Origin: Scolanthus callimorphus | Taxonomy: Eukaryota > Cnidaria > Anthozoa > Actiniaria > Edwardsiidae | Direction of reading: 5' to 3' | Length of the DNA: 64,000 nt | Assembly: GCA_033964015.1 (NCBI GenBank) | Contig: CM066914.1 | Span: 17,811,637 to 17,875,636, forward strand | In this document: positions 9,201 to 63,087 of the stretch, in pieces | How positions within the stretch are numbered: position 1 is the first letter of the stretch | How the letters are laid out: every line of letters starts with the position of its first letter | The notes under the pieces: generated by a model | What the model saw: the letters and a program-made list of their open reading frames with translations, nothing else | Told to the model about the DNA's origin: nothing | Databases searched by the model: none | Position numbers and translations under genes: made by a program

Positions 9201-12200
9201 CATTTCAGAATACATGTGGTGTTTGGCCATGTGATACAAGGTGTTGAGATTGTGGAGGAGGTTGAAAATCAACAGACAAATGATAAAAGTCGTCCACTTG
9301 CTGATGTCAGGATTGCTAATTGTGGAGAACTCATTCCTAAGTCTAAGGCAAAAGGTGATTGCTCTATGAATGCCCAGCTAACTGATGAATAGGCAATCAA
9401 CAAAATTAGCTAGCCAACAGCTGGCTTGTTATGAAAGGCCTGTATTATTGCCCTGCAAAGTGTTCAAAATATTTATCTTCAATACAAAGTATGATAAATT
9501 CTGTTGATCCATTTTAGAACAGGTTTGGCAAGTACAAGATTGAACATACCAAAAATATGATGAGAATGATATGTGACTGTCTCTGATATACTTTCTTGCC
9601 TCTTATGGGGATCCTGGCATTGAGATACCAAAGGTGTGGCTACCTGTTGTTTGGAAATATAAGCCAGATGGTTGAACAAATGACAGCATGGTGCCATCCT
9701 TAAATTTTGGCATCCCAACAGCTATAATAAGGGGCTCCATTTCCTGTCTACATCTGTCTGATGAAGACTAGGAGTACAAAGCTGACACATTGTGGTCATG
9801 CGACAATCAAACTTGATTATTATTAGTATTTCTTGCTGTTTAACATTTCAGTGGACAAGGCAAAGAAAAAGAAGCATGTCTCTTCCTCTGAAAGTTCTTC
9901 CTCAGATGCATCTGATGAATCAGACAGCAGTGAGTCACAAGATGAGATTGTAAAGAAGAAAAGCAAACAGAAAGCCAAGAAGAAAGAGAAGAAGCCAGTA
10001 TCAAAGAGAAAAGAGAGAAAAGCAAAGACTGGGTAAGCTGTTTGCAGATGATTTCAAAGAAAAATCTCACAATTTGTAAAGCGCTTAGAGCCTATGGAAT
10101 TACAGGGATTGTGGAGCTAGGGCGTTTAGCCCCCAAATATTTCGTCAAGTTTTCGTCACTTTGAAAACTGTCCCGCCATCGCTGAATTGACAGTTTTCAC
10201 AACGTTTTGAGAACAATACCCTTGAGCAATACCGACCCGTTCTGGCGAAGACAGCTTTTGTTATTCAAAACAGACAAGCATTGTTCTCATCCCATTTATG
10301 TTGCATGTGCAACATCTTGAAAACTGCCAATTGAGCGCTATATAAACACATACATACATACCCCAGTTTACCAGGCTATTGACCATAGCTATTTCAAGCT
10401 ATACCCATGTAGTTGGGCCCTCATTCTTAAACTGCCATTTACAAGTTTTTAAGCTAGAAAAAAAAGATGGCACATTTAGTAATTCTAGATAACCTTGAAC
10501 TAGTGTAGTTCGGAACAAGGTTGTTTTGATTCGAGCCATATTAAAGGACTTGCATTTGCCTGCAGATCAGAGACAGAGGACAAAAAACAAGAAGCTGAGT
10601 CAGCACCATTCTCAGAAAACCCCCTTTACATGCAGACGGTGGTAGTGGAAGAAATCCCTGATGTACCAACTAGTAACTTCCTGCGAAGACGAAGCCGGAC
10701 ACCATCACCAGTGCGTGAGAAACGCAACCAGCAAGCCAGACGGTACGGTACCCTACCCCTCACTTTTTTGTGCGCACCACAGGAATCCTGACACACTTGC
10801 ACTTGCCATGATTTTGTAATGACATGGAACCCCGTGTAGTTGTCTTTTCCAAGGAAGAGCCACATAATTTTTATTCATGCTTTTCTAATTAATTTTCAAA
10901 TTTTCAGACAAGGTCGCTCGCCCCCTGGTTACAATGCTCCTCAACAGACCACAGGAGCCCCGATCTCTCGTCCAAGAGTAAGTATCAATCGACGTGGAAC
11001 AGAAGATGAAAAAAGTGTTGAATTTAGCCCCAGCCTAAAACCAAGATGGGTGACCTTTGTACACCCATACGGCATCTCTGGGTAACCTTTGTACACCCAT
11101 ACGGCATCTCTGAAAATGGGCTGCAGCTATCAGTGTGTAAAGTGCGTTTTCCTTGTCTCTTCAGATATCAAGTTCTGGTAGGATTCTACGAGGACGTGGA
11201 ACAATGGTACGTATGGCCAATTTTTATGTTTCTTTTTCCTTCAAAATGTAGTATTTTTAGTGGAATAATTTCTTAACCTTCCTGTCCATTAAAGAGGTAC
11301 AGAACACCGCCGCCCGAATCGCCTTCACCTGAACGCCGCCAGCGTAGAAGTCGTTCACGAAGCAGATCGCCGCAACGTCGTCGCCGTTCGGGATCCCCTC
11401 GGCGCTCACCCGACAGCAGGCCGAGAGGTCGCCGGCAGAGATCTCCGATGCGCCGGCGCCGATCAGTTTCGCCAGTGGGCCGCGCTCCAGCCAGAAGCCG
11501 CTGGGAGCAAAGCCCCCGCGATCGCAGGCGCAGCGACCGCAGCCCAGTGAGACAAGACCGCGACCGAAGACGATCGGATGAATTACGAAACAAGCGTGAC
11601 AGGAGTCCTGTGTCACGCAGTCAACCTGAAGTCACGCAAGGCGAACCAGCGACTGTCGGCAGAAGCAAATGGGAACATGACCAAGATCAGCAAGCCAGCT
11701 CGGACGAGGAAGCGGCAAAACAAGGAATCTTGAATGGTGAAAATCAATCCGAAAAACAGAAAACTAGCGTCCCTGCACCAGTTACGCGCTTTGAGGAAAA
11801 CCCTGTACCTTCAGAACAAGAAGAGACCGAACAAGGGCGTGAACAGGCAAGCATAACGGATGAGCGCCAAGATATCGGGGAAAAGGAACCACCTACTGAA
11901 GGAGAACAAAGTCGACAAACAGACCATGGGAAAAGGCCACTTAGCTCGGACAAAAGGCCTAACAGGAATCGCAAAGATTCCGCTAAAAGTAGCTCGGACG
12001 GCTCTCCCGAGCGCAAATCGAAACGGGACCGAAGAGCTAAAAGTCGTTCTAAAAGCCGGAGCCCTTCCGAACGACGTAGTCGTCGTGCTAAGTCGCGCAG
12101 CCGAAGTACATCTCGTTCGCGGAAGAGTTCGGATCGTAAAAGGGATCAGAAAAGTGGGTCACGTGATAGAAGACGCAAGAGCAGAAGCAGAGAGAGAAAA

Positions 12201-12458
12201 AGAAGCCGTAGTAGATCACGTGACAGGTCGCGTCGCGGCAGAAGCCGAAGTCGAGAGAGGAGACGAAAAAGTCGCAGCAAGTCACGTGAAAAGAGCGTGG
12301 AAAAGAAACGAAGGAGCCGCAGTAGATCACGTGACCGTCGTCGGAAAAGCCGAAGTCGTAGTCGGCAACGTCGCTCTCGTAGTCGCAGTCGTGACCGAAG
12401 AGCACGGAGAAAACGAAGAGACAGTTCAAGCTCCGACTCGAGCTCAAGCTCGAATTAG
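6240..12458 (+). CDS. PPIG: PPIG-like nuclear cyclophilin with RS-rich tail
   Basis: Twelve exons are seen: 6240-6312, 7174-7248, 7947-8054, 8396-8440, 8555-8642, 9057-9086, 9209-9354, 9852-10032, 10566-10742, 10908-10977, 11165-11206 and 11295-12458, giving 732 residues. Residues 1 to about 185 are a cyclophilin peptidyl-prolyl isomerase domain: [52 protein letters not shown]. The catalytic Arg, Phe and Gln of the FHR...FMVQ block are present. The Trp that cyclophilin A uses for cyclosporin is His (PTPHLDG), as in human PPIG. A Ser/Lys-rich linker follows, then an RYRTP motif and an Arg/Ser-rich tail with many RS and SR dipeptides from about residue 350 to the end. The family acts in nuclear speckles and binds the C-terminal domain of RNA polymerase II. 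Its length is close to human PPIG (about 754). Confidence 0.95.
6712..7093 (-). mobile_element. tRNA-derived SINE
   Basis: On the minus strand the head (7093 down to about 7021) has box A TAGTGCAGTGG and box B GGGAGTTCAAACC of a tRNA-like polymerase III promoter. A body with repeated GGACGTTAAA motifs follows. The tail has AAAGCGCTTTGATCGCTA, a GCGCTATATAA-like end. It is in PPIG intron 1. The acceptor stem does not close like a working tRNA, so I call a SINE rather than a tRNA gene. Confidence 0.72.
7398..7614. mobile_element. hAT-like MITE (CAGGGCTGGAAATTA ends)
   Basis: The termini CAGGGCTGGAAATTAA and GCAATTTCCAGCCCTG are inverted, and the interior repeats TAGTCGCC or GGTCGCC blocks. CAGGG ends suggest hAT, but a clean eight-base target duplication is not visible. 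It is in PPIG intron 2. A similarly ended element is at 33752-33908. Confidence 0.6.
10185..10332. mobile_element. Inverted-repeat element, family I copy 1
   Basis: The ends AATTGACAGTTTTCACAA and TTGAAAACTGCCAATT are inverted. The core CTTTTGTTATTCAAAACAGA is shared with the copy at 42457-42574. It adjoins GCGCTATATAAACACATACA, a SINE-like tail. It is in PPIG intron 8. Confidence 0.65.
11046..11112. repeat. Two-copy tandem repeat of about 33 bases
   Basis: The unit containing CCTTTGTACACCCATACGGC followed by ATCTCTG occurs twice in a row inside PPIG intron 10. Confidence 0.85.
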
Positions 12459-36000: not shown

Positions 36001-39000
36001 TTCCTGACTTTCGCTCTAAAGCGTGTGGTCGCCAGTGCAGTGACGCTCAGCTCTCGTAGGGTCAGTTGCTTCCGATCAAATTCAGATACTTCTCGATAAT
36101 CTGCATCTGAGAGATTACGAAATTTGATATAAATTACTCGCGGCAAGTCTAGCACTGTTACTGCGATTTTCATAATTCTGCGAACTCTACACCGACCAAC
36201 CAACCGCGGTTTGGCTTCGTCGATCAAACGAGTGAACAACTCTGTGATTTCTAAACAAAAATGGCTAGTTTTAAAAGTGTCGAAAAGTCGATTGAACAGT
36301 CGCAAATTATTTCGGCACTCTTTCGAACGAACAGGATCTACTGTAGCTCCGTCAGGTTTATTTTGGATTCCTTAACGGGACTTACCGAAATCAAACTCAC
36401 TACTGAAGGCTTCACAAATCACCCTGGGATGGCGTAGAATGAACCAATAGGCGCGTCGATAGTGCTTACGTATAAAGGCATGGAGTAGAGGGTTGAGGAG
36501 CAAGCTCACCACGCCCATATGGATTTGGTAATTAGCTAGAACGTCCGCCTCCAGGGCTGTGTTGCCTAGGTGATGCAGAGCTATCACGAGCTGAGGAGAT
36601 AAGAGTCAAAAGAGCTTTAGAGAAGCATGGCCGTGTGATTCGCTTTTTGAAAAACGTATACCTGGTATACGTATCTCTGGCTAAATACCAAAATGTGCTT
36701 GCTAATCGTCTTTTCAAACTAAGCCTTCGAATTCTATGCTCTATACAAGTAATTCATTCTCGTACTCTGAGCTCCCCGGCTCGTCAACTCGCAGAGGAGG
36801 CTCTGGTGACAGCTACTGACGCATGTGCGAGATTTGATACAGAGCCGCTGAGAAAAACAATCTTTCTGCGCATGCTCCAACGTTCAAAATCAGCAGAGCC
36901 ACCCCCGCGAGGTTGAGTACGAAAAATGTTACCAGTCTCACTCGCCACTCGGGGTCAGAAGAGCGTCGAGGTCCTGGGTACGAGAGTGGAGTGGCGCCAA
37001 TTTCGACAAGAGAACATGAATCAAAAACACACTCACAATTGTACATTTCATTCCCAATTATTGATCTTGGAGTCGTTTGATAACCTATACAAATAAGTAT
37101 TTCCTGTAAAGCGTACTCCAAAGCAAAGGTAATAAAAATACTGATGGTGTTTGTGATTCCTCTTGTCCATTGCGGCACTTTAAAGACGATTGACTGACGA
37201 TCTAGACACCAAAACAACCTTGTCTCACGGGGAGCTCACACCACGCCCGACAAACGGCGCATTGTTTGACATCATGTTTATTTTAATTTATTGATAAACA
37301 AACTTCTAATGGGGCGTCGTTGTCTACAGTAAAAGCTAATTAATTCATAGCGCGGGGGATCAGAGAGACTCGGTGGTGATTTGGGCGAAACAATAGCCCC
37401 TCTTGGCTATTTCCGCTAGACTTCCGAGTACATATTTGTTCATTTCACTGATAACTTGGGGTCTCGCGATCTGAAATAGCTCGCCTGTTAAATATTTTAC
37501 TTTCGGCCTTTTTGTGATCTTTACATAAAAAAGAAAATATAAAGATCAATTATTGTAGGCAGGGAATTTGCCGTGCTTCCTGTTATTTTTAGTTTTTCGC
37601 TTCCAACTATTTTTAGCGTTTGTTCTGGTTTCCATATATTAGCGTTTGTTCTGGTTTCCATATATTTGAATTTTAGAATGCATTTTAAGGCCTTTTAAAG
37701 CGTTTTTATGTGAGTCAACATGGACCTGCTAAAACCATCAGTTATCCGACGACATTTTCTAAGAGGCCCCGCCCATTCCTATTAGCAATTGACATACTGA
37801 ACAACACTGTTGACCTTCTAATTTTATTTCTCCGTTAAAAAAGCCCTTTGGTAACAGGCTTATTAATGGCTAGAGATTGATAATTTATTGGAGTAATTCA
37901 GGTGAAGGGCAGCTCCTAATGCTTAGCGGTGTGTCCCTGATCATGGTGGCAGCTAGATAGCAAGAGAAAACACCTCTTGACCAATCAGCGTGCGGAAATT
38001 CATAAGTACGATTGCAGTATTTTTGCGCTCCATTGCCAATCTGCGCACAACCACCTTAATTATAATTTTCTGCGCAGCCAAGCAGATGAATTAAAATGAC
38101 ATCCGGCTCTCTTTCATCAATATGATATTTCTAAAATGGTGCTTTGTATAGAGCTTAGATGTCAATTAAATTCGGAGTGAAATAACGTGATACAAAGCTT
38201 TTGTGTTCTTTGTAAAAGCTGTGTTCGTATGCCATGAAGGGAATCCGTTATTCCTATCACGTTTAAGGTGCAATTAACGTCTCGTTTTTATAAAGATATC
38301 TCTTTTATTTTGAAATTAGTTCCTATTGGCGCCGATTGCTATCTCTGTTTTAGTCCTCCAAGCAAATATTGCCTTTTGCGAAGAACAGTCAAGGCTCAAA
38401 TTTAAATTTCCTGGCAAATGGCGTTGTAATTTCCTAAAAAACAAAACGGATAAAAGTTTTACAGAGCATGGTGCGAGCAAACGACAACTGACTTTAAAAA
38501 TAGTTGAGTTTATTACTCGAAATCGCCCCTTTGCCTTGAAACACCGTCAATTCCGCTTAAAAAGAACTCGTTTAATTTGATAGCTAGTGTTACCGAAAGA
38601 ACTTTTCGCAAGACTCTTCAAGACGATTTCGGATCTCAAATTTTACCGCAAACTGACAAAGGTATTGGCCCTTGTGGTTATAAATGAGTTTTAGAAATCT
38701 GCGCAGAAAGAAAATGAGATTTTCTTTTTGCCGCCAAATTACATAGCATATTTCATTTTTTCTGTGGATATTTGAAAATAAGTAGGTTTGCGCAACTTCA
38801 AGAGTAACTTGGCGCCCACAGTGGATCATTGCATATTTACGAACTCACCTGAACTGGTAGAAAACAGAGAGGAAAATAGCACGAGACTATCACCATAAGT
38901 TTCGCATATTTCATATCACTTCTTCGCTGGATACTGTTTCGTGATAGTCGCAGTTTGTATGTGGCCGCGTGAGGTTTGTTCACGACGGGTACAACATTTT

Positions 39001-39700
39001 TTCCACGTTGAAACCTTCTCTTCATAAAATATACTACCACCCCAATGTTGCAAAATAAAACCAAGGCAACCATTAAGGTTGTGTCTACAGCGCAAAGTAT
39101 CACGTAGATTCGTGCTGCAGTTGGCGCTTTGCGGGCGGCCAGCCAATGATACAGACATAGCGACCATTCGTTAAAAATACAAGTCTTGAAGTCTTTCGAG
39201 TGGAGACCAGTAGAGGGGATCAGCGCTAGACATACACTGTATAATCCTGAAAAACCTATAGCCAAAAGGGTAGGCCGAATTAGAATGTTTGATCTGTAGA
39301 AAAATGGCTTGGAGATGGCAAGGAATCTGTCTATGGCTACTAGAGAGGCTAGTAACATGGAGAACTTGAATAAAAACGTGGATAAGAAGGCGGACATGAA
39401 GCAAGTGGCTTTCCCGCCAGGCCAAGTCTCTGCCAGACCGTGCACAACAAGTAACGGTAGAACTAACAATGGGATTAATAAATCTATAGCTGCCAGAGCT
39501 GCTAGAAGAAGATCTGTGGGTTTTCTTCGTTTCTTTTTCCTGACTACACACAAAGTGAGAATATTCCCCATGATAATCAGCAAGGAAGCCACTGCAAAAT
39601 ATACTGCAGATGTTCTCCTCCCGACTGAAGGCAAGATAGACAAACTCTCATTCCCATCGATGGCTTGACAAGTAGCATCCATCTTCAATTCACAATTCAC
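33020..39700 (-). CDS. Rhodopsin-class GPCR with a cytoplasmic tail of about 300 residues
   Basis: Five exons are seen on the minus strand: 38849-39700, 36386-36590, 35981-36250, 34775-35197 and 33020-33252, phases consistent, giving 660 residues. Exon 1 encodes TM1 (IIMGNILTLCVV), TM2 (LAALAAIDLLIPLLVLP), TM3 with a DRF in place of DRY (ASLVAIDRFLAISKPFF), TM4, the second-loop Cys (KTCIFNEW), TM5 and most of TM6 (CYFPLCFLPVQ). Exon 2 supplies TM7 with NPLLHAF in place of NPxxY and helix 8 (RKHYRRAYWF). A sequon NES is near residue 18. Exons 3-5 encode a Ser/Thr- and Arg-rich tail ending in basic KKGRRHRKRST. The ligand is unknown; the DRFLAISKPFF block is vaguely prostanoid-receptor-like, but I would not name it. 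An alternative start Met lies six codons in. The long tail suggests arrestin or scaffold binding. Confidence 0.85.
33437..33609. mobile_element. MITE with GGACGTCAA ends
   Basis: ACGGACGTCAATCCCAGG and GGAGAGTTGACGTCCCTG are imperfect inverses around an A/T-rich core. GPCR intron 4. Confidence 0.55.
33752..33908. mobile_element. MITE with GGCTGGAAATT ends
   Basis: GGCTGGAAATTGCG and CTTAATTTCCAGCC are inverted, and the interior repeats TTTGCGAC. GPCR intron 4. Confidence 0.6.
34449..34774. mobile_element. Element with GTACCCCCAGGGGGGTAC ends abutting a GPCR exon
   Basis: Left TTGTACCCCCAGGGGGGTAC and right GTACCCCCTGGAGTTGTAC are inverse-like. Inside are repeated AAAAAACTACC and AAAATAC blocks. 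Its right end supplies the GT of the splice donor of GPCR exon 4 (34775). Confidence 0.65.
36750..36905. repeat. CTCCCCGGCTCGTCA repeat, isolated copy
   Basis: GAGCTCCCCGGCTCGTCAAC, then GAGGAGGCTCTGGTGACAGC and TGCGCATGCTCCAACGTTCA, in the same order as in the array at 51880-53470. It is in the GPCR intron 1; the minus-strand frame through here is not a gene. Confidence 0.75.
37612..37672. repeat. Two-copy tandem of 26 bases
   Basis: AGCGTTTGTTCTGGTTTCCA followed by TATATT is present twice in a row in GPCR intron 1. Confidence 0.85.
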
Positions 39701-42101
39701 CTGCTAGTCGTTTCGCTAGGTCTTCAAACCCATCCTTCTCCAGAATGTTTTAAGCCCGCCAACTAGTCAAAAACAGTTAGTTTATGCTTAGTGTTTGCTT
39801 GGAACCCATATGGCACACATCTGGTATTGAGTTTTTTAACGATAGTTTCAATATTTGGAGATGTTTTTGTCGATGACTGTCATTTCGCTCATGGACGTGC
39901 GATATAATAAAGAAAGCAGAAGAGGTTGTTCAGATCGGTCTTTCATGAGCAGTATTGTGTGTTAACTCTAGGTACATATGACGTCAGAGCTGGCCTCCAT
40001 AAAATCTAACACATGCTGGGACGGCAAAAACAGTCCATTTGAACACGACGCCAGAATTCTCTCGTTGTTGATAATAGTATCAAATCATTCCAATTCTCAC
40101 CTTTTGACGTTCCTCTAGGATTCAGAACGCGAAATTAAGTTTTCAAGTGACAGCCGAGGATCTCAAAGCATCTTTTCACTGTGACAAAGGGCATGATGTT
40201 TGCACAAGTTTTAGAGTCGATAGCCAATGCGGGCGTGTTCGCTTATCGCTCGCCACACCACTGTATACAGATTATAAGCACCGTTGCAAAATCTTCGATA
40301 GCGTGAGGTTATTTGTGGTGTTCAAAGAACCAGGTGCCAGACTGTTGTTGTTCACTCATTATATGATATTATTGTACACATTCTGGAATCTAAAACACAC
40401 GCCTCGTTATGGCAGAGGCGTGTTATCCGCAAAGTCCAGTCTCTGGATATTGTCTAGTCTCTTAAGCCATACAAGGTCAGAGAAACAAGCTGGTTTTTGG
40501 TTATCTTGACTGACGAACAATGCGCTATATCAGTTTCGAAACCCTGATTTTAGTAAAAAGAAAGCTTTTAGAAGAAAACCCTTTTAGAGTGACCTCACAG
40601 ATAGTCTTTTTTCGCTGCTTAGGGTTTGGGGAGATTATCTCGGGAACACACACGACTCGCATATCGCCCTTCTGACTTTATTTCTTACTTTTTCAAAGTG
40701 CCTTGAGCAAACGAATTGATCGATTTAACCCAATGATGGAAGATCGAATTGTGTCTCTTGGTTTCTTGCTGTCTTGTAATATGTCTGGTGTCTGCCTTAG
40801 GGGCAGATTAAACGAGATTTAATGGAGATTTTCGTGAGCTCAGACTAACGATAGCGATATGCCACATTCCCGCGTCTGTCGGGCTTTGTTCAGTGGTACC
40901 AGTAAAAAGCATAAATGCTAGCTTTCACTCTTGCGATCCAGGGTCCTCCCACCACCTCTCTAATGCAGAGTTTCTACTACCCCTACTTGGGAAATGTTTC
41001 TACTACCAAAATCTGGGAGGCACGTGACCAGTCTAGGTACTTTCTCTCTCTCCCCTAAGGGGGAGGTGAGGGAGGACCTTGGCGGGAAAGGATGGCATTG
41101 CTCTGTGTAGACAAAGAGGAAAACCCAGCTCGTATTTACTCTGGTAACAAGAAGCCACAATCACTAATTTTTGTGAGCCCCTAACTTCGTATTCCGCGCT
41201 CCTTAAAAAATAAATTGCTCGTTTTTTGGCTCATATCATAGGCTCCCCAAGCTACTGATTTCTGCGAAGAATTAACGGCAAAAATACTGAGAATGTATGG
41301 ACATGTAAATCACAAGAAAAGTATACGATGGAAATCACAAATAAAGAATTGTTCTATAATAATATATAGTTGTACATTTTCACTAAACTCCCCCCCCCCC
41401 TCGCCCCCACCTTGCCATACAATCTTACTATTGAGCCCTCCCTACTTTGAAAACTGTTCCGCCGTCCCTGAATGCTTGGCACTAAATGTAGCATTTACAG
41501 TGTAGTATTTTCTTGATGCCTGTTGCAGCATTAGCTCTCAAACTAATAACTAGGTTGCCCTGCAAAAATCATTTTAATTCCCATTCTGCAGTGTACAATA
41601 GTAGTTTGTATAATCTGCATTGTTATTCAACAATAAGTTGCCAAAGGCAATGTGATTATTGGCGAATACAAAGACAAGGTGACTATTCGCCGATAATCAC
41701 AGAGCCTGAGGGGACTAATTGTTTGAGTATAATTGCTAAAGTGATTCATAAGATTTTTAGCCAAAAAAGCTTGTTTTTGTTGGATTTTTTCACAATCATA
41801 ACAAAACTTGTGCACGCTCTCCCAATCCTTTCAGAGAAAACAAACCTCTCGACCAATCAGCATGTGGAAATTCTTATAATCACTTGAGTAATTATACTAA
41901 AGAATGTTTATAGAGTTTTTAAAATTTTAATCTTCTTTTACTTGATGGAGTCCATGTATGATAGTTTTGTGACTATACTTGAGTATGCAGTTAAATGACA
42001 AAGTTTGTTTGTGGGAGGAACAATGCAGCCAACCTAACCAAATAATGAACCCACTAAATTGAAAACCTAGGACCCCAGCATAAATTTAACAAGCCTTGAT
42101 T
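39701..42101. other. Gene-poor region upstream of the GPCR
   Basis: No gene is recognised. A 120-codon open frame at 40147-40509 has no family resemblance and no splice context. It includes inverted-repeat element J copy 2 (41636-41902). The GPCR promoter and any noncoding 5' exons should be here, but no clear signal was found. Confidence 0.5.
41636..41902. repeat. Inverted-repeat element, family J copy 2
   Basis: It shares GGCGAATA, GAGTATAATTGCT, CTCGACCAATCAGC and the terminal AGTAATTATACTAAAG with the copy at 862-1116 in the same order. Confidence 0.65.
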
Positions 42102-46099: not shown

Positions 46100-48431
46100 A
46101 TGGCGGACCGCTCAATATCTTTTTCCAATCAAAATAGTGAAGAAATGCTGGCTGTTCGTAATCCTGAGCCATCGGTACGTGACTTTTCAGTATTATCGAA
46201 TATTCACTTGGTATAAGAGACCTTTTAGTTATGTTTCTTTGTGTTCCTTGCTAATTTGGCCCTTATTTTGTGTTTAGAAGAAGAGTTTGGTGTCTGTTGA
46301 AGTTGGTCTCGAGGGGGGAAGTCAAGCGGTGTTGACTGAGACGAGCGACGAATTTGATCCTTGGGCGCTACCAGCGTTCCAAAGCAATGGGCCAAAGTGG
46401 TCAGGTGAGTATTTTGGTTAGTCTTTGACTGTTAGTTTGGCCTCCTGAGTTATATTTATTAAAATAAACGGTTTCTCACTCGTAATGTTTCGACGGTTTA
46501 TTTGCCCGCCAAAAATTTTGGCGCGCGATTTCTAAATCCTGAATTTTCTTTGTCTTCAGAGCTCGACGCTTTTGGAAAACTCAACCGAGTGTTCTGGTTC
46601 GTGGCCAAGTTCACGTGTCTGGTTGGCTTGCTTTACCTGTTCATTTGCTCACTCAGTTTTCTGAGCAGCGCTTTCAGGCTTCTTGGTGGCAAGGCTGCCG
46701 GTGAAGCGTTCGCTTCGAACAAGATCCTGACCAACCCTATTGCCGGACTGATGATTGGAATCCTTGCTACTGTCCTTGTACAAAGCTCCTCCACCACCAC
46801 GTCCATTGTTGTGGCAATGGTTGCCTCTTCAAGTGAGTATTTTAGTTTTTACTAAGCCAGTAGTTTACCCATGTTCGTTTCAGCACGTGAAGTGATAAAC
46901 TCAAATGTCTTGGTGATTTGTGTCTCAAATCTTCCCTGCTGAAGAGAGTTACAAAAAAATATATTATTTGGCCCTCGCTGTACAAAAAGGGGTTATTTTG
47001 GCCACATCCTGGGGATGGGGGGAGGCGCTTGTTCTTTTAATTGAAATTGGCTCTTTTCTTTCAGTTTTGGATGTGAGACCAGCCATCCCCATTGTCATGG
47101 GTGCCAATATTGGAACATCTGTGACAAACACCATTGTGTCCCTTGCCCAAGCTGCTGAGCGAAATGAATTCCGACGAGCCTTTGCTGGGGCCACAGTCCA
47201 TGACATATTCAATTGGCTCTCTGTGCTTGTGTTCCTCCCACTTGAAGTTGTCTCCCACTACTTGTTTCATCTGACAAGTGTGATTGTCAATGTCATGAAT
47301 ATCAAGACCAACAAAGGGGCAAAGACAGAGCTTCTCTCCAAAGTCACCAAACCATTCACCAACCTCCTCATCCAACTGGACAAGAAAGTCATTACTGAGA
47401 TAGCTTTGCAGAAGAAGGGTGCCGAAGAAATGTCTCTTATCAAGACCTACTGCAGCAAGGAAACTGTAGTTGTTGTAGAAAATGTAACAATGCTTGTGAA
47501 TGAAACTGTCAATGGAGTTGTCACAGAGGTTAATAGGACAATGCCTGCTAATGTGACCAAGGTTCTCAAGACCCCATGCAATTTCCTGTTCCATGACTCA
47601 GGACTGTCAGACACTTATGTTGGTGTCATACTGTTGGTCATTGCCCTTGCCATCCTGTGCACGTGCCTGATCCTCATTGTAAAGCTGCTACACTCCATGC
47701 TGAGAGGCCAGATAGCTGTGATTATCAAACGGACAGTCAACTCTGATTTCCCCAAACCATTCCACCACTTCACTGGGTACTTTGCAATTCTTGTTGGTGC
47801 TGCAATGACCATATTGGTACAGTCCAGCTCCATATTCACTTCCGCACTCACCCCACTTATTGGTGTTGGTGTTGTAACCATAGAACGTGCCTATCCCTTG
47901 ACCCTTGGTGCAAACATTGGAACTACTGGGACTGGAATCCTGGCTGCTCTTGCAAGTGATGAAGGAAAGTTGGAGAACGCCCTACAGATTGCCTTGTGCC
48001 ATTTGTTCTTCAACATCTCTGGTATAGCACTGTGGTACCCCTTTGCATGCCTCAGACGTGTGCCCATCAACTTTGCAAAGACCCTTGGAAACAAGACAGC
48101 AGAGTACAGATGGTTTGCTGTGGCCTACCTCATCTTTGGGTTCTTCCTCCTCCCTGCCTCTGTGTTTGGCCTTTCCCTTGCTGGTTGGCAGATCCTGTTG
48201 GGTGTAGCTGCCCCAGTACTGTTGCTCTTCTTGTTCATACTGGTCACAAGTCTACTCCAACGCAAGGCTCCAAGTGCATTACCTGAAGTTCTGAGAGACT
48301 GGGAGTGGGCACCAAAATGGACACGTTCATTAGAGCCCCATGACAAAGTGATAGCCAAAGTGTGTGAAATTGGCAAGGGGCGGTGTGGTATTAAAAGGAC
48401 TAACCTGAAGCCTGTTGAAACCTGCGTATAA
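46100..48431 (+). CDS. SLC34A: SLC34-type sodium-phosphate cotransporter (NaPi-II)
   Basis: Four exons are seen: 46100-46174, 46278-46404, 46560-46832 and 47065-48431, giving 613 residues. The two inverted Na/Pi repeats each carry [24 protein letters not shown] and [20 protein letters not shown]. Conserved flanks are [48 protein letters not shown]-type [38 protein letters not shown] and [17 protein letters not shown]. The large extracellular loop between repeats has four N-glycosylation sequons (NVT, NET, NRT, NVT) and a Cys pair. The family moves phosphate into cells using the sodium gradient. The C-terminus ...VETCV could bind a PDZ domain, which is inference. The start codon sits in AAAATGGCGG (46097-46106). 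The in-frame extension upstream of 47065 is intron read-through. Confidence 0.96.
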
Positions 48432-54315: not shown

Positions 54316-57300
54316 TCACATGAAGCCAAACATCTGCATTAACGAATTGGAATATGCCATAGGTTTCACGTCTGGATGAGGCTGAAATGGAAATAATTCA
54401 GTGTAAATACACCTTATAGAGCCGATTTCACATGATTGTGGTAAACCAAACGCAAAGTAAACACACCAATTCTGAACAAAACGTATAGGAGTAAACACAA
54501 AGTACGAATTACTCCGGACACTCATCTGAAATATGCTCTATTCATCTTCTAAACACACTCCACGCCCTCTTACTAGTAACACTGATAACATTTTCTCATT
54601 GCTATTCAATAGTAAGTAATATGACCACGCCTCAAATTGATAAGACCTACAGGGGCGTAGCCAGGATTTGAGAAAGGGGTGTCACATCTGTACAAATGTT
54701 TGGTGCCCTTTTCGAGCTTACCGATATTTTTCTTAATGTTTACCGATTTTTCTTCTAAAATGGGGGGTCACATGCACCCCGGGACCCCCCTCTAGCTACG
54801 CCCCTGATCTATACGCTTGAACACTTACCACAGCTTCGTACGTCGTGAATTTCGGTTTCAAATCCTCGCCCATGGTGATGAATGCCCCTTTATTCTGCAT
54901 TTGATCGCTAAAAACAAAAGAAAAAATATATATAGAACTGTAGCAGGGTAATAGAATTCCAGAATGCAAGAAATCTACACGGTCGCATTCATTCCCTTTG
55001 TTTTACCATACGACTATGCACCGTCCTCACGCTCGATCTCTCGAATGCTTTTTCTATTCACGGTCTTCCTGTGGTGTCAAAATGTGACACTCTACACCCG
55101 TGGAAAGCATTTACCACAGAAAACCTGAACGGCTGGAAAAAGTAGGGTTGTTGAGGCTCCCATGTTTGATTAAAAAGAAGACATGAATACAAGCGTACGT
55201 ACCAGTAGTTTGGGGCGGAGAATATTGTGATACACTTCCCATCGTGCATGACTTCGTAGCCTTCGGGTTTGACTTCGTGGCTTCTTATGATATACTCTAG
55301 AAAAATCCACACACATATATATATATATATATATCGTAATTCGGACGTGTGAAAAATTACGATAATCCCCACTATCGCGAATTCATCCAATCGAAAAATT
55401 TTCACATAAAAGTTTAGATAAACACAATAATACATGGGCTCTTGGAGATATGAAATTTATCTCCCCCCAACATAATTTTTCTCCCGTCACCCCTGCCATT
55501 TTAATGCAGGGGATGGCGCGGAATTGGGCGCCGCGCCGATGACCATCAGTTATTCCAGGCTCTGTACTATATAGACTGTATAGTTTGTACAGGAAGCTCA
55601 CCTAGCCCATTGTCGTTGCAAAATTTCTCTGTCACATCAGGACCAAACTGAATCCCAACTCCTCGTTTACTGGTCGATCTACCAGGCTTTTAGAAAAGAG
55701 AACAAAACCACACCAGTATGACAAAACCTAACCATCACGACTTAAAATATTGTCAGTCACGTTCTACGGCGAATGTTAGTGTGATCCAGGTAATATGTTG
55801 TTCGCCGGTCTGCAACTGAACAGTAATTACCCACATACACCTAACTCAATTACCGTCGCTCTGGGAATAGGTCATGGACGCACGAAATACAAACCAAAGA
55901 ATATCGCCCGAGGGCCAAAGACCTTTTCCCAAAGCAATCTTTTTAAAAACAGGTGTATAAGAACCTCCGATTACCGTATCGTGTCTAAATGTAAATATAA
56001 ATGCTGGAGGCCGATCCCCAGACTTGCGGCTCGTAAGCTGAATTACGCTGGGTCACAACAGCGTTTCTGACAGCCAAGTGGCCACAAATACAGACACTGA
56101 CGGTGGTCACTGACTATCGCTTTTATAGAATATGATCTCAGGATTCTACATTAGTGTACCTGGGGTTGCGGGTCTGACCACAGCAAATCACACATTGGAC
56201 CTGTACAGAAATGGAAACCATATCATCTCAATAAATAGACTGCTTGCAGTCCTTTATTTTGCGATCTTACATAAATACAAGAGAAAAGTCGTTGCTATGC
56301 GCGCTTTTATTCGCCTACGCGTCTTGTTTGGGTCTCGAGTTCGAGTCACGCTCAGCGCACCACGGGGGACTCACCCACCAAATGGGTGTAGCTCCTACAA
56401 GAATTATACTCTGTTCCCATAATGATTGCATTGCTTCCAAATGACATTCTAGTACCTTCTGAGGGAGGCTGCTTGTTCCTTGATATGCTCTTTAACTCTT
56501 CTAGCTTTACATTATCATTACTGAACAACCCACCATGCATAACCTGAAACAAACATTATTACAGGGTAATCTGGCAAAGTGCTATCTCGCACTCTACATT
56601 GACTTCCAGAGAGCGCACTATTTCACACTTCTATGATTTTCCGCATATTATAACTTTGCTAAAAGAATCCTTATTTTTACTACCGAATACTGTAAAGCAC
56701 ACATTTGTCTGATTCTCTTAAACAATGGAATTGTTTTTCAAACAGGGCACTTTTTTGCACGAAATGTTAGCTAAGATTGTTCAAAGTTTCAAGTCAATTT
56801 TCTGATATGAGAATACAACACTGTGATGTCACCTTGTAATACATACAACTCATTTTTTTTATAAACGTTTTAAAATAGAGGAAGAAATACACAAGATTTA
56901 TTTAAGCAAATCAAAAATGGCGACACAATGAAGTTCAACAGAATACTTACTAAAACTTTCTTATTTATAATATGACACAGAGGCAACCAGTTGTACACTT
57001 CTGTAAACAGTGCTACCATATCTGAGGTATATGTAAGTAGTGAGTTAAGGATTAACAAGCACTGTCCTATGTAAACTGATAAAAGAATAATGATCATCTA
57101 TGCATAGTTAGTCCCCTCTACTAACTATGATCTATGTTTTCTATGGTGGTCGAAAATGATTAAAATAATTTATGGTGGCTCCCGTATTTCGGAAAGGTCT
57201 CTCAGTTTGTTGCTAAAACTAGTGTGTTTCCTATCAGCTTATTATTATCATAACTTCTCAATCATTTATCATACCAAGGTTAGGGATATACAAAACTTTG

Positions 57301-60300
57301 TCCTGCACTTGCCCCTCCAGTCCCTTTCCTAATGCCTTTAATTGAAAGGGGAAAGAAAGAGGGAAGAAGAGGCAAGTGCACCAACGTTTCGCATTTGATT
57401 GCAGTACAAAAAACAACAATGTCCTCTTCAATTCTGAATTTTGAAGTTCATCCAACTAGCTAAATGTTTGCCGCTACACACAATAGCGCTTTTGTCTTCA
57501 TGTCTGTGAAGATAACCGGCCTTCTTGTGTTTGTTCTGTTGGGTTTGCAAGTTTGCAAGTCAATCACAGTCATAAAAGGATATTTGGCTCTCACTTCACC
57601 ATCAAAACCATACATCTGGTTCATGGAACTACTTTCATGGTTACCTGAAATCAGAAAAAAGTAAAACTACTAGAGTGCCAGATGTTTGCAAGGTTGATAA
57701 ATATAGGGGCTATTCCACCTACACATGATGAAATCTTTTACTGCAATTTTCATGATTCTGCAAACACTACTCCACCAAATTTTCCACCATAAAATGCAAC
57801 TGAAACAAAATTAGAAAATACCTGTGCTTGTCTTAAAAGTTTGATGGAAATGTAAGGTGGAAGTTCGCAAAATTATGAAAATTGCAGTAAAGAGCTGTGT
57901 ATCAAAGTTAGAGTTAGAGTGAAAATGATTAGTGCCTCTCTGGGATTGTTCTTATATATTAATGTATTACAACTGCATGATCTTACCTCTTGACATGAAG
58001 AAATGGTCTGGATACAAAAGTTTGAAGCTAAATAAAGTAAATATGACTTCACATGAAAAAGATCCTCTATCTACAAAGTCACCATTAAATAGCTTTTAAT
58101 ACAAGTTAAGGAAATTAATTAAATCTTATTTGGCAGAAAGAACAGATAGGAAGGGGAAAATGGGCAGGAAAGGTGTGGCATGAATGAAAATGGATACTTC
58201 CCACAAAAACGTAAACTGCACCGTGAATAAAAAAAAACTTCCATGGATACTTCCCACAAAAACATAAACTGCACCATACATATGTACTGAGTTCTGGAGA
58301 ATTTTGGCAGCAAGTCAAAAGGGCAAAAAGGTTTATGATTTATACATTCTTCACCAATTGATCTTATAAGATCTTTATATAGGATCCTGCTAAAGATTTT
58401 CACCAGGGCAGTTCAAGACAAGTTTATACAGTTGGTTGATTATTGAACCTAACACCATTGTTACCTAACACCGGCGTTATTGTACCATCTCTTTGTTCAC
58501 TTGTTTGTGCACAGTGATGGTAAATAAGTACCAACATTGAGCTAGTAAGATTCAGAGAGCACTCAGACATGTAAATAAATGAGCACAAAACAAAATATTA
58601 TGATTCTAGCTGTAAGCCTTTGCACTCTACTTTCTTCAAAAATGCTTTTGGGATGTAACACAACTACCGACATGCAGCACATGCATGAATTCATTATAGC
58701 TGGAATCATCCATTGTGGGCATCCTTTGAAGTTTTTCAGAGTTTCTGAGCCATTCCACTTTATTAACTATGCTCAGGACTAATGGACTACTGCTAAGAGT
58801 GAGTACTATGATGATATTGTTGATCACAGCAAGGATACATATGGGTTATCTTTAGATGGAAGTCCATTCATCTCAAAGATATTTAGCAGATCATAAAATT
58901 GACCATGGATATCTCCACAAACAGTAAATGTCTTTCCCTGATAGTACAAAAAGCCATTAGCTGTATACAGTAGGATTAACAAAAGTTTAAGACATGTATA
59001 GTTCTCAGAATTTGAATCTTGGAGTCTAGCAATTTATCCCATTTCATACATTTTACTCAACTATCAAAAATCTGAGTTTCCAAGAAATAAACAAAGTGAA
59101 TTTTATGCACATGAATGTTCTGAGCATGAGATATACATTATATAATAAATTTACTGAGCAATCACTACATTTGATTTCTTGCATCAATAGGGCCACTAGG
59201 CTCAAATTTGAACACAGCCAAATCCAGAGCTTTCAAGCATGGACAAATTCCAAATCTTTTTATCTAATTTGAGAGCCAAAGTCTTGACAGAGCTGAGCTT
59301 GAATGTATCTTATTTTATTGACAATTTTCTACTGTTACATACCTGTGGAATTGTAATGTCTATTAGAGATGGCATCTTTTCAAACATACTTTTCACTTCC
59401 TTCAGTATCTGTAACAAAACACATGAATAAATGTAGAATCTCTAGGAATAGGAACCACTCTTTGATTTGCATAGATGGAAACCTCCCATGGGACCCATGC
59501 ATTGTTTACAAAGAAATATTAATATTTGTGTTTTCAATTTATCACCCTTCTGGTAATATCAGGCCCGTAGGCTGAGGGCTTCGGGGGGTTAGTATGAACT
59601 CCCCTGCCGGACTTAGAGGTCCGCTCTGTGGTAATGAAAAAAGAAAAATATCAAAAATTATTAAACAGATAGTCTGAAGTCATAAGTCTTTATCAGTATG
59701 AAGATGATGACTATGGTCCGTCATTTTCTATAAAAAAAAAACGTTTATGGGCCTGAATATCGTTAAGTCAGCAAACTTTATTTTATCAGGATGATTTAAA
59801 GTGCCACTTTAATTAATATCATTATTACCATATAGGCATATTTCTTATGAATTCTCTTCTGGTCTTTAAATCTTTCCATCATCTGTTTGATGAACTCTGC
59901 TGAGATGCCATTCTCATCAATTCTAGGTCCATCATAGTCTTCTTCAACAACTGTAATCAGCATAATATATTGTCAGAAGGATGAAATGCTTACATACATG
60001 TATGAATGCATATTTGTGTAGGTAATCACATGGTTTGTAGTGATATTTTGCAGAAATACTAGAAGTGATTATGTCTAAAATGTTAGACATTTCACAGGTG
60101 TTTACAATGATATACCATACAAACTAAATGACTGTTTATTTAAAATATGACCAAAGACATTTACTGACTTTGAAATCACACTGGTCAATTAAAAATCACA
60201 CTTGTTACACTGGAATCACACTCCTCTTAGCCAATACGAATATAGAAATGTTTTGGGTCATGGGGTATGACCATTCTATTATTTGAGAAAGAATAAAATA

Positions 60301-63087
60301 TCCATGCCCTTATCACACAAAAAAAGAAATTATTGAGGGAATGGAGGGTTGATTTGCCTTTTTTCAGGGAACAAAAACAATATTATGAAATCCTACAGCC
60401 TCTACTGCTGTGGAAACCTCATGGCCCTGTCCGTTACAGAGGCCTCTCCTACCCAGACGCCATCTCAGGGCCCCAAGGGATGCCAGATGATGATGATTAT
60501 TATGTTAAACACAAACAACTAGAGGTATGATGTGTACAAATAAACTTTTCATTCTTACCTATAGAATTGATGTTGATAGTATCTGATATTGGCTTTTCTT
60601 CTACAGCAATGGCACTTTCAAATGCTAGTCTCTGTGATATTTTCTTGCACTCCAAATACTTAGCTTTAGCATCTTTATCATTTGGTCTGTATTTCACAAC
60701 CTAAAGTAACAAAACATACAGTACAAACACAAAAATTAAAATCCAAATTGCAATTTCTGAATGTGTGATTCCAGAAAAAAACCCATACCCCCCATAGAAG
60801 GGATTGGAGAGGGATCCAGAGGGATGGAGAGGGGGTCAAATGCCTTTTTTACAATCACTGTAATTTTCACTGGAAATTCCAGAGGGACAGAGGGTCATAT
60901 CTCAAACCCTTCTATGGGAGGAGTATAGATTATTTTTGGAATCACAAAATAAGGAACACAACTATCTGTTGCATGGAGAATACTTAATCTGCTGCATTTT
61001 GGAGTATGAGTTTCAGCTTTTGAGTGCTCATTAAGTGGATTATTTTATTGATTTTTTTACTTGTTTTATTCCAGAAAAAAAACATACCCCACTACACAGG
61101 GAAATAAAAATTCCAGGGGGATGGGACTGGCTTAATTATTTTCAGCCAAAGCTTGAATTACCTTTATGGTAGCTACAAAATCTGCCCATATTTGGCATAA
61201 TAAGGTTAATGTAGGCCTAGCTTTACCTTTGCTCTCTCAACGATAAAATATGAGAGCCACACTCGTATTTTGTTATCTCTAGGGGGTGAATTTCATTGTT
61301 CCTGTTGAGCATCCACACTTGTGGATATGAGAATCCCCTTCCCCCCATGATATTAATATCATTTGCCATACTTAATGTCAAACTAGCAACTTGACAAAAG
61401 GTCAGTTCTGGCAGAACAACCGAACAAAATACTGTCACTTGCTTACCATTTCAAAGTCTTTTATGCTAAGTTTGAACTTTCCTAAAGCCATGTTTGCAGA
61501 AGCTCTTCGGTAATATCCCTGTAATAAAAAGTGTATAATATCATAAGAGCTGCTGTGATTAAATAAAGTTACAACTAAAAATAGAGACCTGGCCTGTCAT
61601 GACCAATCATCAGTTGTGATGCTTTATCCTCCATTTCTAATAGAGTGGATTTCAGATGACTGTCATGAGTAATTCACAATTGCTTTGCAATCCCTCCTAT
61701 AGATTTTATTCAGAATTGGTGTAATCACTTTGCAATTGGTTTCACTAAAGTCATATGAAATTCACTCTAAAACCATCATGTTGAAATTACTGCTGTTTCA
61801 GGTAATACGTGACCCAGCGCATTCAAAACATCGAGAGGGCTTTTGGCAGTTGGGTTTTCCTGTGTAGTCAATCAAACCATGTGAGCCAATCAGATCCTTG
61901 CCTAGTGCAGTGAATTGGCTTTGTTGCGACATGTCTCGCAAGGGAAGCCAATCGAATGCACTGAGTAAGGATATGATTGGCTCACACGGACATGGATTGC
62001 ATTGATGAACAGCACAGTAAACCCAACTGCCAAACTCTGGCAGCAACGGCAAAGTCGTGTGTTACCTGAAACAGCTGTAATGTTGTTATCTTTGCTGTAA
62101 TTCCATATTATTGTGAAAAATATTCTCAGATACTGGTATTTTCAATCTTCTATTAGTTTCTCTAGTCTTCAAATTTTTAGGCTAATTCAGAAAGGATTTT
62201 CTCAATACCATCTGATGCGTTCCTTGTTGCCTAAATCAGATGATATTCTGCAAAATCGAGCAGGATAATTCTGTTTTTTTTCAGCGAATTGATAGCACAA
62301 AAGCATCCTAGAAAAGATTTGCTTTTTGCATATTTTTGTACCAGCTCAACATATCAAATTTCACACAGATGACAGGGCAGAACCCCCCCCCCCCCGATTT
62401 GAATATGAATAGATATTTTGTTTTATGCCACCTCGTTCTATAAGAACTTCAGAGAGATGCAAATCAGCAGGGGGAGGTGGGATTCACAAGATATGTGCAG
62501 AAGAAAGATATCACAGTTTCCAGGGATGTCAAGCATAAGACTTCAGAAATTGGGAGAAACCATGGGATTTCAGATGAAATACATTAAGATTATGAGAAAA
62601 TTCCAAGACAGAAAACCAGGAAATAAAGTAATGTGGCACCTCAGACTTCCCTGGGTTTCAATGACCATACTTGGGCAGTGCATCTAGTACGGTTGACTCT
62701 ATCTCACCTTGATGTACTTCTTGTCAAGCTGTATTGCTTTAGTGGCATCCCCTAAAGCTAGCCCATAATATTCATTCTTCAGGTAGCAAAAGCTACGATT
62801 CCCGTAATACGCAGGGACAGACGGGTTAAGCTCTATTGCCATGCTGTAGTGGCTAATGGCTTCAGTATACTTTCCCTCTGAGAAAAATAACGGAGGTCAC
62901 GATTGATAAAATCCTCATTTTCTCTATGAGATCTTCTCTAACATTTTCCCAATTATTTCAATCAAATTCATTGTTCTGCAATAAAAAAGAGATTACCTTT
63001 AAAGTAGCCATTTGCGATCGTCTTCAATCTTTCCGCTTCTTCCTCTGTTGAAATCTTCTCACCTTCACCTTCACCGTCAGCCGCCAT
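54316..63087 (-). CDS. PPP5C: Serine/threonine-protein phosphatase 5
   Basis: Sixteen exons are seen on the minus strand: 62997-63087, 62708-62877, 61447-61518, 60559-60700, 59829-59950, 59343-59408, 58839-58937, 57987-58092, 57584-57644, 56951-57032, 56456-56543, 56160-56200, 55602-55686, 55203-55296, 54829-54907 and 54316-54381, giving 487 residues (human 499). Residues about 15-130 are TPR repeats ([40 protein letters not shown]), which bind Hsp90. The PPP catalytic core carries [51 protein letters not shown] and FSAPNYCDQ, so the metal ligands are present. The C-terminal helix [15 protein letters not shown], part of autoinhibition, is kept. Two introns are U12-type. The start codon is in a CCGCCATTTTGG element. 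Confidence 0.97.
54417..54540. mobile_element. Foldback MITE, TAGAGC family, copy 2
   Basis: TAGAGCCGATTTCACATGAT at the left and ATCTGAAATATGCTCTA at the right, with the shared core ACGTATAGGAGTAA. PPP5C last intron. Confidence 0.7.
55311..55334. repeat. AT dinucleotide microsatellite
   Basis: An (AT)n run preceded by ACACAC in a PPP5C intron. Confidence 0.95.
57033..57583 (-). other. PPP5C: U12-type AT-AC intron in PPP5C
   Basis: On the minus strand the donor ATATCCTTTT (57583-57574) is a perfect AT-AC minor-spliceosome match. The branch site ATCCTTAAC lies at 57052-57044, and the intron ends TAC at 57033, 12 bases from the branch A. Joining restores codon AAA and the conserved VRAKYTSDM (human VKAKYTAQM). 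GT-AG alternatives break the frame. Confidence 0.95.
58093..58838 (-). other. PPP5C: U12-type GT-AG intron in PPP5C
   Basis: The donor GTATCCTTGC (58838-58829) and a perfect branch site TTCCTTAAC (58113-58105) lie 13 bases from the terminal AG. Phase 0, joining DNPY to [10 protein letters not shown] across the conserved phosphatase motif. Confidence 0.95.
60761..60950. mobile_element. MITE, TGTGTGATTCCAGAAA family
   Basis: ATGTGTGATTCCAGAAAAAA at the left and TTTTTGGAATCACAAA at the right. Inside, AAATTCCAGAGGG and GTCATATCTCAAACCC are shared with 30033-30290. A fragment follows at 61065-61120. PPP5C intron 3. Confidence 0.82.
61641..61769. mobile_element. Foldback MITE, TAGAGC family, copy 3
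   Basis: TAGAGTGGATTTCAGATGAC on the left, GTCATATGAAATTCACTCTA on the right, and a TCCTATAGATTTTATTC core. PPP5C intron 2. Confidence 0.75.

What the first reader, a model, noticed from the sequence alone, without database searches (positions are those of the whole stretch)
57033..57583. Second U12 intron in the same gene, of the AT-AC subclass
PPP5C has a GT-AG U12 intron and, only one intron downstream, an AT-AC U12 intron with a perfect ATATCCTTT donor. Two minor-class introns of different subtypes in one gene would make its expression unusually dependent on the minor spliceosome.
Basis: partly seen in the sequence, partly recalled or inferred. Interest (0 to 1): 0.8.

Follow-up and report, generated by a model that had tools for sequence, protein, structure and literature searches.

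The report
Conserved AT-AC minor intron in PPP5C
A sea-anemone-like animal's gene for the enzyme PP5 contains two rare 'minor-class' introns of different subtypes; the odder one looks old and shared with corals, mussels and a spider, but genes with two such introns are a known kind.

Summary
On the minus strand, PPP5C (PP5, 487 aa, 16 exons) has intron 9 at 57583..57033: 551 nt, phase 2, AT-AC, donor ATATCCTTT (9 of 9), branch site ATCCTTAAC (8 of 9). Intron 7 (58838..58093) is a GT-AG U12 intron; intron 8 between them is U2-like. Of 15 introns only 7 and 9 score high on both signals. No GT-AG or GC-AG pair tried restores the conserved protein. New here: listed database proteins of five species (octocoral, stony coral, spider, two bivalves) break at exactly this junction with the text K-Y-P-F or K-Y-P-L, which is a phase-2 RTATCCTTT donor read as codons. 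Two Mytilus records agree at 494 of 495 aligned residues and differ internally only there. The intron therefore probably predates the cnidarian-bilaterian split. 'Unusual' is not supported: 53 human genes hold two or three minor introns (PMC6717393), and clustering is significant in 21 of 21 genomes (PMC7367187). Extra dependence on the minor spliceosome is untested. Real; new member of a known kind.

The parts
54316..63087 (-). PPP5C (PP5) coding region, start codon to stop codon, 16 exons, 487 aa
   Evidence: Exon model; phmmer to solved PP5, E 1e-210; 85% identical to Nematostella vectensis PP5
57033..57583 (-). Intron 9: 551 nt, phase 2, AT-AC, U12-type
57574..57583 (-). U12 donor ATATCCTTTT of intron 9 (9 of 9 to RTATCCTTT)
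57044..57052 (-). U12 branch site ATCCTTAAC (8 of 9); branch A at 57045, 12 nt from the last intron base by coordinates
   Evidence: one search prints the distance one lower
57033..57034 (-). 3' terminal dinucleotide AC of intron 9
57584..57644 (-). Exon 9, 61 nt, ending ...GAA GTG AGA GCC AA
56951..57032 (-). Exon 10, 82 nt, starting A TAT ACC TCA GAT ATG
57645..57986 (-). Intron 8: 342 nt, phase 1, GT-AG, U2-like, between the two U12 introns
   Evidence: donor 4 of 9, branch 5 of 9 to U12 consensus
58093..58838 (-). Intron 7: 746 nt, phase 0, GT-AG, U12-type
58829..58838 (-). U12 donor GTATCCTTGC of intron 7 (8 of 9)
58105..58113 (-). U12 branch site TTCCTTAAC of intron 7 (9 of 9); branch A 13 nt from intron end by coordinates
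   Evidence: one search prints the distance one lower

Best explanation
57583..57033 is a genuine U12-type AT-AC intron (intron 9) of PPP5C. U11 pairs with ATATCCTTT and U12 with TCCTTAAC; U6atac then replaces U11, and the minor spliceosome joins ...GCCAA to ATATACC..., making the conserved K-Y-T of the PP5 catalytic domain. It is an old animal intron, inferred at the same place and phase in Cnidaria, Mollusca and Chelicerata. It sits two introns after a GT-AG U12 intron, with one U2 intron between, so exons 8 and 9 each have one minor-spliceosome and one major-spliceosome border. If intron 7 stays in, the frame stops after four extra codons; if intron 9 stays in, it stops after 41 codons counted from the split codon. 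Either product lacks much of the phosphatase core. Shown: sequence, frame, signals, junction errors in other species' proteins. Inferred: the snRNA steps (general knowledge of the minor spliceosome), splicing itself, and any regulatory effect.
For: Donor 9/9 and branch 8/9 at protein-fixed borders; the other 13 introns score donor 3-6 and branch 4-7, and only introns 7 and 9 are high on both. Joint chance about 2e-7. Only AT-AC and its four shift-equivalents (TA-CA, AT-AT, TC-TA, CC-AT) give the exact conserved protein among all pairs tried. Junction gapless against PP5 of other animals and the PDB PP5 sequence. Direct count over the listed proteins: P follows the conserved K-Y in 1 of 120 proteins and 4 of 90 further proteins, always as Y-P-F or Y-P-L: P0010 Paramuricea, P0176 Acropora, P0121 Caerostris, P0147 Sinanodonta, P0203 Mytilus (phyla). 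P0203 against P0061, same species: 494 of 495 aligned residues identical, the only internal difference in length being six residues here. P0010 against Dendronephthya P0008: the only internal gap is the 23-residue insert here. Control with a vertebrate probe that also carried YPFL: 0 of 119 listed proteins with a readable anchor (120 listed) have P there. Molluscs, arachnids and Acropora are reported as relatively rich in minor introns (PMC10639083, section read).
Against: No RNA was seen for this species. The errors in other species are read from proteins, so the first base (A or G) and the 3' end of their introns are unknown; some could be GT-AG or AT-AG. In Paramuricea and Sinanodonta the codons at the 3' side fit an AG end at least as well as AC (inference from the protein text). 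The Y of Y-P-F is a conserved exon residue anyway, so only P-[FL] is diagnostic. The second search carried YPFL and so favoured such hits; the first, without that bias, gave 1 (P0010) of 120. All three lists were capped at 120 (of 7955, 577 and 364 hits). Most proteins, including those of Nematostella and Actinia, simply show the clean junction, which says nothing on the intron class. Intron 7 is in phase 0, against the reported bias of minor introns away from phase 0 (PMC10639083). Minor snRNAs of this genome could not be searched: the tool did not complete.
Confidence: 0.93

Rival explanations
1. The intron is removed by the major spliceosome through GT-AG sites nearby (for example the GTGAGA at 57594 inside exon 9 or the CAG ending at 57022), and the AT-AC signals are a coincidence.
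For: There is a fair GT donor (GTGAGA) 11 bases before the end of exon 9 and a CAG 11 nt inside exon 10. Some AT-AC introns are of the major class (PMC2831892 and PMC6717393, passages).
Against: No GT-AG or GC-AG pair in the tested region gives the conserved protein; all open ones change residues of the catalytic core. Joining GTGAGA to that CAG gives GAA ATA TGG TAG, a stop (by inspection). Major-class AT-AC introns of the sodium channels have G at +5 (PMC2831892, passage); here +5 and +6 are CC.
Confidence: 0.03
2. The segment is a real U12 intron but is often kept or alternatively spliced, acting as a switch that limits PP5.
For: Retention of either U12 intron brings an early stop. A-type minor introns show higher basal retention and depend on CENATAC (PMC8280824, passages). 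The abstract start of PMC3728624 (listing) calls minor introns embedded molecular switches in its title.
Against: No expression data for this gene. PMC7367187 states that excision rates are too similar for a meaningful general effect on expression.
Confidence: 0.15
3. The gene model is broken at this place (pseudogene or assembly fault) and the U12 motifs are accidental.
Against: All 16 exons join in one open frame of 487 aa, and the 11 aligned PP5 sequences of A1 share 70% mean column identity.
Confidence: 0.01

Closest known systems
U12-type (minor) AT-AC introns as a class; one named example is human IPO5 intron 21 (PMC8280824 legend)
   Same: AT-AC ends with the long U12 donor and branch consensus of the class (consensus recalled and consistent with the papers seen; IPO5 itself was not examined)
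   Different: Host gene PPP5C. Two full-text searches (PPP5C with U12; PPP5C with minor intron) found no paper on it, but gene lists in supplements were not readable
Genes with two or three minor introns (53 in human and 53 in mouse by PMC6717393)
   Same: Two minor introns among many major ones
   Different: Here the subtypes differ (GT-AG and AT-AC) and one U2 intron lies between. How many of the 53 are mixed was not seen; the Figure 5 legend of PMC8280824 names Morc3 for AT-AC and GT-AG retention, which may be such a case
U12/U2 twintrons (prospero of Drosophila; PMC2831892 table, PMC3564746 in the listing)
   Same: Possible U2 sites lie just outside the U12 sites
   Different: No outer GT-AG or GC-AG pair tested keeps the conserved protein, so there is no evidence for a twintron

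Membership tests
U12-type intron | Donor RTATCCTT(T) at the exon border | tested here: met
   Intron 9: 9 of 9; intron 7: 8 of 9. Consensus letters recalled.
U12-type intron | Branch site TTCCTTRAC a short distance before the 3' end | tested here: met
   8 of 9 with branch A 12 nt from the end (intron 9); 9 of 9 with 13 nt (intron 7). Consensus letters recalled.
U12-type intron | No U2-type splice pair explains the same protein | tested here: met
   No GT-AG or GC-AG pair in the tested region gives the conserved protein at intron 9. Not tested for intron 7.
U12-type intron | Removed by the minor spliceosome (needs U11, U12, U4atac, U6atac) | not testable with these tools
   Needs RNA and a block of the snRNAs
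U12-type intron | Minor snRNAs present in the genome | not tested
   The genome search gave no answer in ten tries; no Rfam match inside the window, which says nothing about the rest of the genome
AT-AC (A-type) subclass | AT at the 5' end and AC at the 3' end | tested here: met
   Five registers give the same protein; AT-AC is the one whose donor consensus starts at the first intron base
Conserved ancestral U12 intron | U12 donor at the same position and phase in distant animals | tested here: inconclusive
   Inferred from protein prediction errors in five species of three phyla; no DNA seen; none in 119 proteins of the vertebrate-probe list
U12/U2 twintron | Functional U2 sites enclosing the U12 intron | tested here: not met
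   No enclosing GT-AG or GC-AG pair in the tested region gives the conserved protein; RNA could still show minor use of one

The most novel reading that the evidence does not exclude
The alternating U12-U2-U12 run in the PP5 catalytic core is an ancient animal arrangement, kept because each of exons 8 and 9 is bridged by both spliceosomes, so that PP5 output follows the activity of the minor spliceosome and, through intron 9, of the AT-AN factor CENATAC.
Probability: 0.1. Interest if true: 0.55.

Novelty: new member of a known kind. Interest (0 to 1): 0.35.

Why it matters
It adds an apparently old AT-AC intron to a well-studied phosphatase gene. Junction errors in public proteins look like a cheap way to find other AT-AC introns that gene predictors miss, and five database entries for PP5 appear to be wrong here. 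The gene also offers a natural comparison: GT-AG and AT-AC minor introns in one transcript, so the reported special need of AT-AN introns for CENATAC could be tested within one RNA.

Tried and rejected
Chance: the donor and branch motifs taken alone are about as frequent as expected in 64 kb, and loose donor-plus-branch pairs occur 14 times in the window (7 per strand) against a mean of 5.9 per random strand. So I relied on the borders that the protein fixes.

U2 alternatives: all choices of first intron base in 57634..57501 and first exon base in 57120..56961 were enumerated. None with GT-AG or GC-AG gives the conserved protein; one GC-AG pair gives the right length (48) but another sequence.

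DNA of relatives: scans of bacterial and archaeal genome contigs and of viral contigs with the protein alignment and with an exon-9-plus-donor pattern gave no animal PP5. One distant phosphatase on a viral contig (L001, 39%) was not followed.

Counting of errors: the script flagged 7 of 210; two (P0037, P0075) are normal proteins with IPL or VPL in place of LPL and were dropped by eye. In one search the script flagged 5 proteins: P0223 ends early, P0278 and P0318 lack a piece further on, P0292 has a frame shift after K-Y-T, P0324 is normal by eye; P0265 had no anchor. Because those tests were loose, I made a direct count of the residues after the conserved K in all 330 listed proteins: 329 had an anchor, and P follows K-Y in the five named proteins only.

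Literature: PPP5C with U12 found two unrelated papers, PPP5C with minor intron none; supplements could not be read.

Full report
What is there. The minus strand from 63087 to 54316 encodes serine/threonine phosphatase 5 (PPP5C). Sixteen exons join in one open frame of 487 residues. The protein matches solved PP5 with E 1e-210. The best listed relatives are Nematostella vectensis (85% identity) and Actinia tenebrosa (81%), so I take the window to come from a sea anemone or a close relative (inference); Nematostella is placed in Actiniaria, Edwardsiidae.

The two introns. Intron 9 (57583..57033, 551 nt, phase 2) starts ATATCCTTTT and ends ACTTAC. It has ATCCTTAAC at 57052..57044, with the branch A 12 nt before the last base. 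Intron 7 (58838..58093, 746 nt, phase 0) starts GTATCCTTGC, has TTCCTTAAC at 58113..58105 and ends in AG. Of the 15 introns only these two score high on both signals: donor 8 and 9 of 9, branch 9 and 8 of 9. The other 13 score donor 3 to 6 and branch 4 to 7. Intron 8, between them, is U2-like.

Is it more than chance? The motifs alone are not: RTATCCTTT is found once with 1.54 expected, TCCTTRAC four times with 4.53 expected. But the exon borders are fixed by the conserved protein. At those borders the joint chance is about 2e-7 for intron 9 and 3e-6 over 15 introns (rough). Of all donor and acceptor pairs tested, only five give the conserved protein: AT-AC and its four shifts, TA-CA, AT-AT, TC-TA and CC-AT. 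No GT-AG or GC-AG pair does.

Evidence from other animals. No animal genomes could be read here, but predicted proteins could. A gene predictor that does not expect AT-AC introns must do something wrong at this place; errors at non-canonical sites in ab initio prediction are described for Arabidopsis in PMC5716242 (abstract start). Reading a phase-2 donor RTATCCTTT as codons gives K-Y-P-F, or K-Y-P-L if the next base is A or G. Five proteins break at exactly this junction with that text: Paramuricea clavata K-YPFLCRQ, Acropora digitifera K-YPFNTIF, Caerostris darwini K-YPLKIFF with the protein ending at residue 317, Sinanodonta woodiana K-YPLTITF, and Mytilus galloprovincialis K-YPFYFSK. They belong to Octocorallia, Scleractinia, Araneae and, twice, Bivalvia. 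A direct count over the 330 proteins listed by the three searches found P after the conserved K-Y in these five only: 1 of 120, 4 of 90 further ones, 0 of 119 with an anchor. The lists are capped at 120 of 7955, 577 and 364 hits. The two Mytilus records P0061 and P0203 agree at 494 of 495 aligned residues and differ internally in length only by six residues here. Bias: the probe contained YPFL and favours such hits; one search did not. The vertebrate-type probe carried YPFL as well and found none, so the bias alone does not produce the pattern. The U12 donor is therefore inferred in Cnidaria (stony coral, octocoral, and the window), Mollusca and Chelicerata. The published survey reports relative enrichment of minor introns in molluscs and arachnids and an average density in Acropora above that of most vertebrates (PMC10639083, section read).

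Weak points of this evidence. It is protein text, not DNA. The Y belongs to the exon in any case, so only P-[FL] is diagnostic. The 3' ends of the introns in the other species are unknown. In Mytilus the residue before S-S-K-M is K and not Y, which suggests that the false join lies inside exon 10, as expected if no AG ends the intron; in Paramuricea and Sinanodonta an AG end fits at least as well (both inferences). Most listed proteins show a clean junction, which is silent on the intron class. Vertebrates may lack the intron, have a U2 intron there, or be well annotated; this was not resolved.

Transcript-like support. Four full-length relatives (P0003, P0005, P0006, P0007; 73 to 75% identity) have longest contigs of 1861 to 2533 bases. 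That is short for a gene with many introns, so they are probably cDNA (inference), and they show K-Y-T-[SA]-D-M without insert.

How it works. By established knowledge of the minor spliceosome, U11 and U12 recognise donor and branch site, and U4atac/U6atac with U5 carry out the reaction; none of this is shown for this gene. Retained intron 7 would stop after V-S-L-L (CCA TAT GTA TCC TTG CTG TGA). Retained intron 9 would stop after 41 codons counted from the split K codon. Exons 8 and 9 each have a minor site at one end and a major site at the other, the setting for which bridging between the two spliceosomes is reported (PMC8034651, abstract read). AT-AN minor introns depend on CENATAC, 92% of A-type against 24% of G-type introns being affected by its depletion in human cells (PMC8280824, passages). 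The prediction is that intron 9 rather than intron 7 is retained without CENATAC.

Is it new? Two minor introns in a gene is a known pattern: 50 genes with two and 3 with three in both mouse and human (PMC6717393, passages), and significant clustering in 21 of 21 genomes (PMC7367187, section read). [quoted passage not shown] No paper found by two searches links PPP5C with U12 or minor introns, but supplements with gene lists were not open to me, so it may well be listed. I rate it a new member of a known kind.

Noticed in passing
57583..57580 and 57032..57029: The four bases ATAT stand at the start of intron 9 and at the start of exon 10, which gives five equivalent registers. It may be chance or a trace of how the intron arose.
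   Followed up: partly
58275..58190 (intron 7, read by eye): A direct repeat of about 33 bases, roughly GGTGCAGTTTAYGTTTTTGTGGGAAGTATCCAT, in two copies; each holds GTATCCAT, which resembles a weak U12 donor.
   Followed up: no
P0001 (Nematostella vectensis, 704 aa): The Nematostella PP5 record carries an extra N-terminal part with a helix-loop-helix domain (PF00010) that resembles MAX (name recalled). Its first 215 residues have no match in the window, so it may be a fused annotation of two genes.
   Followed up: partly
P0121, P0147, P0176, P0203, P0010: Five public PP5 proteins appear mis-predicted at the intron 9 junction.
   Followed up: yes
38843..39703 (-): Open frame matching the rhodopsin-type receptor family 7tm_1, E 7.8e-27.
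   Followed up: no
46917..48425 (+): 503-residue open frame matching a sodium/phosphate cotransporter family, E 1.3e-17.
   Followed up: no
11277..12452 (+): 392-residue open frame rich in R and S with no Pfam match; may be part of an SR-type splicing protein (guess).
   Followed up: no
L001:2244-2972: A viral-collection contig encodes a phosphatase 39% identical to the PP5 catalytic domain.
   Followed up: no
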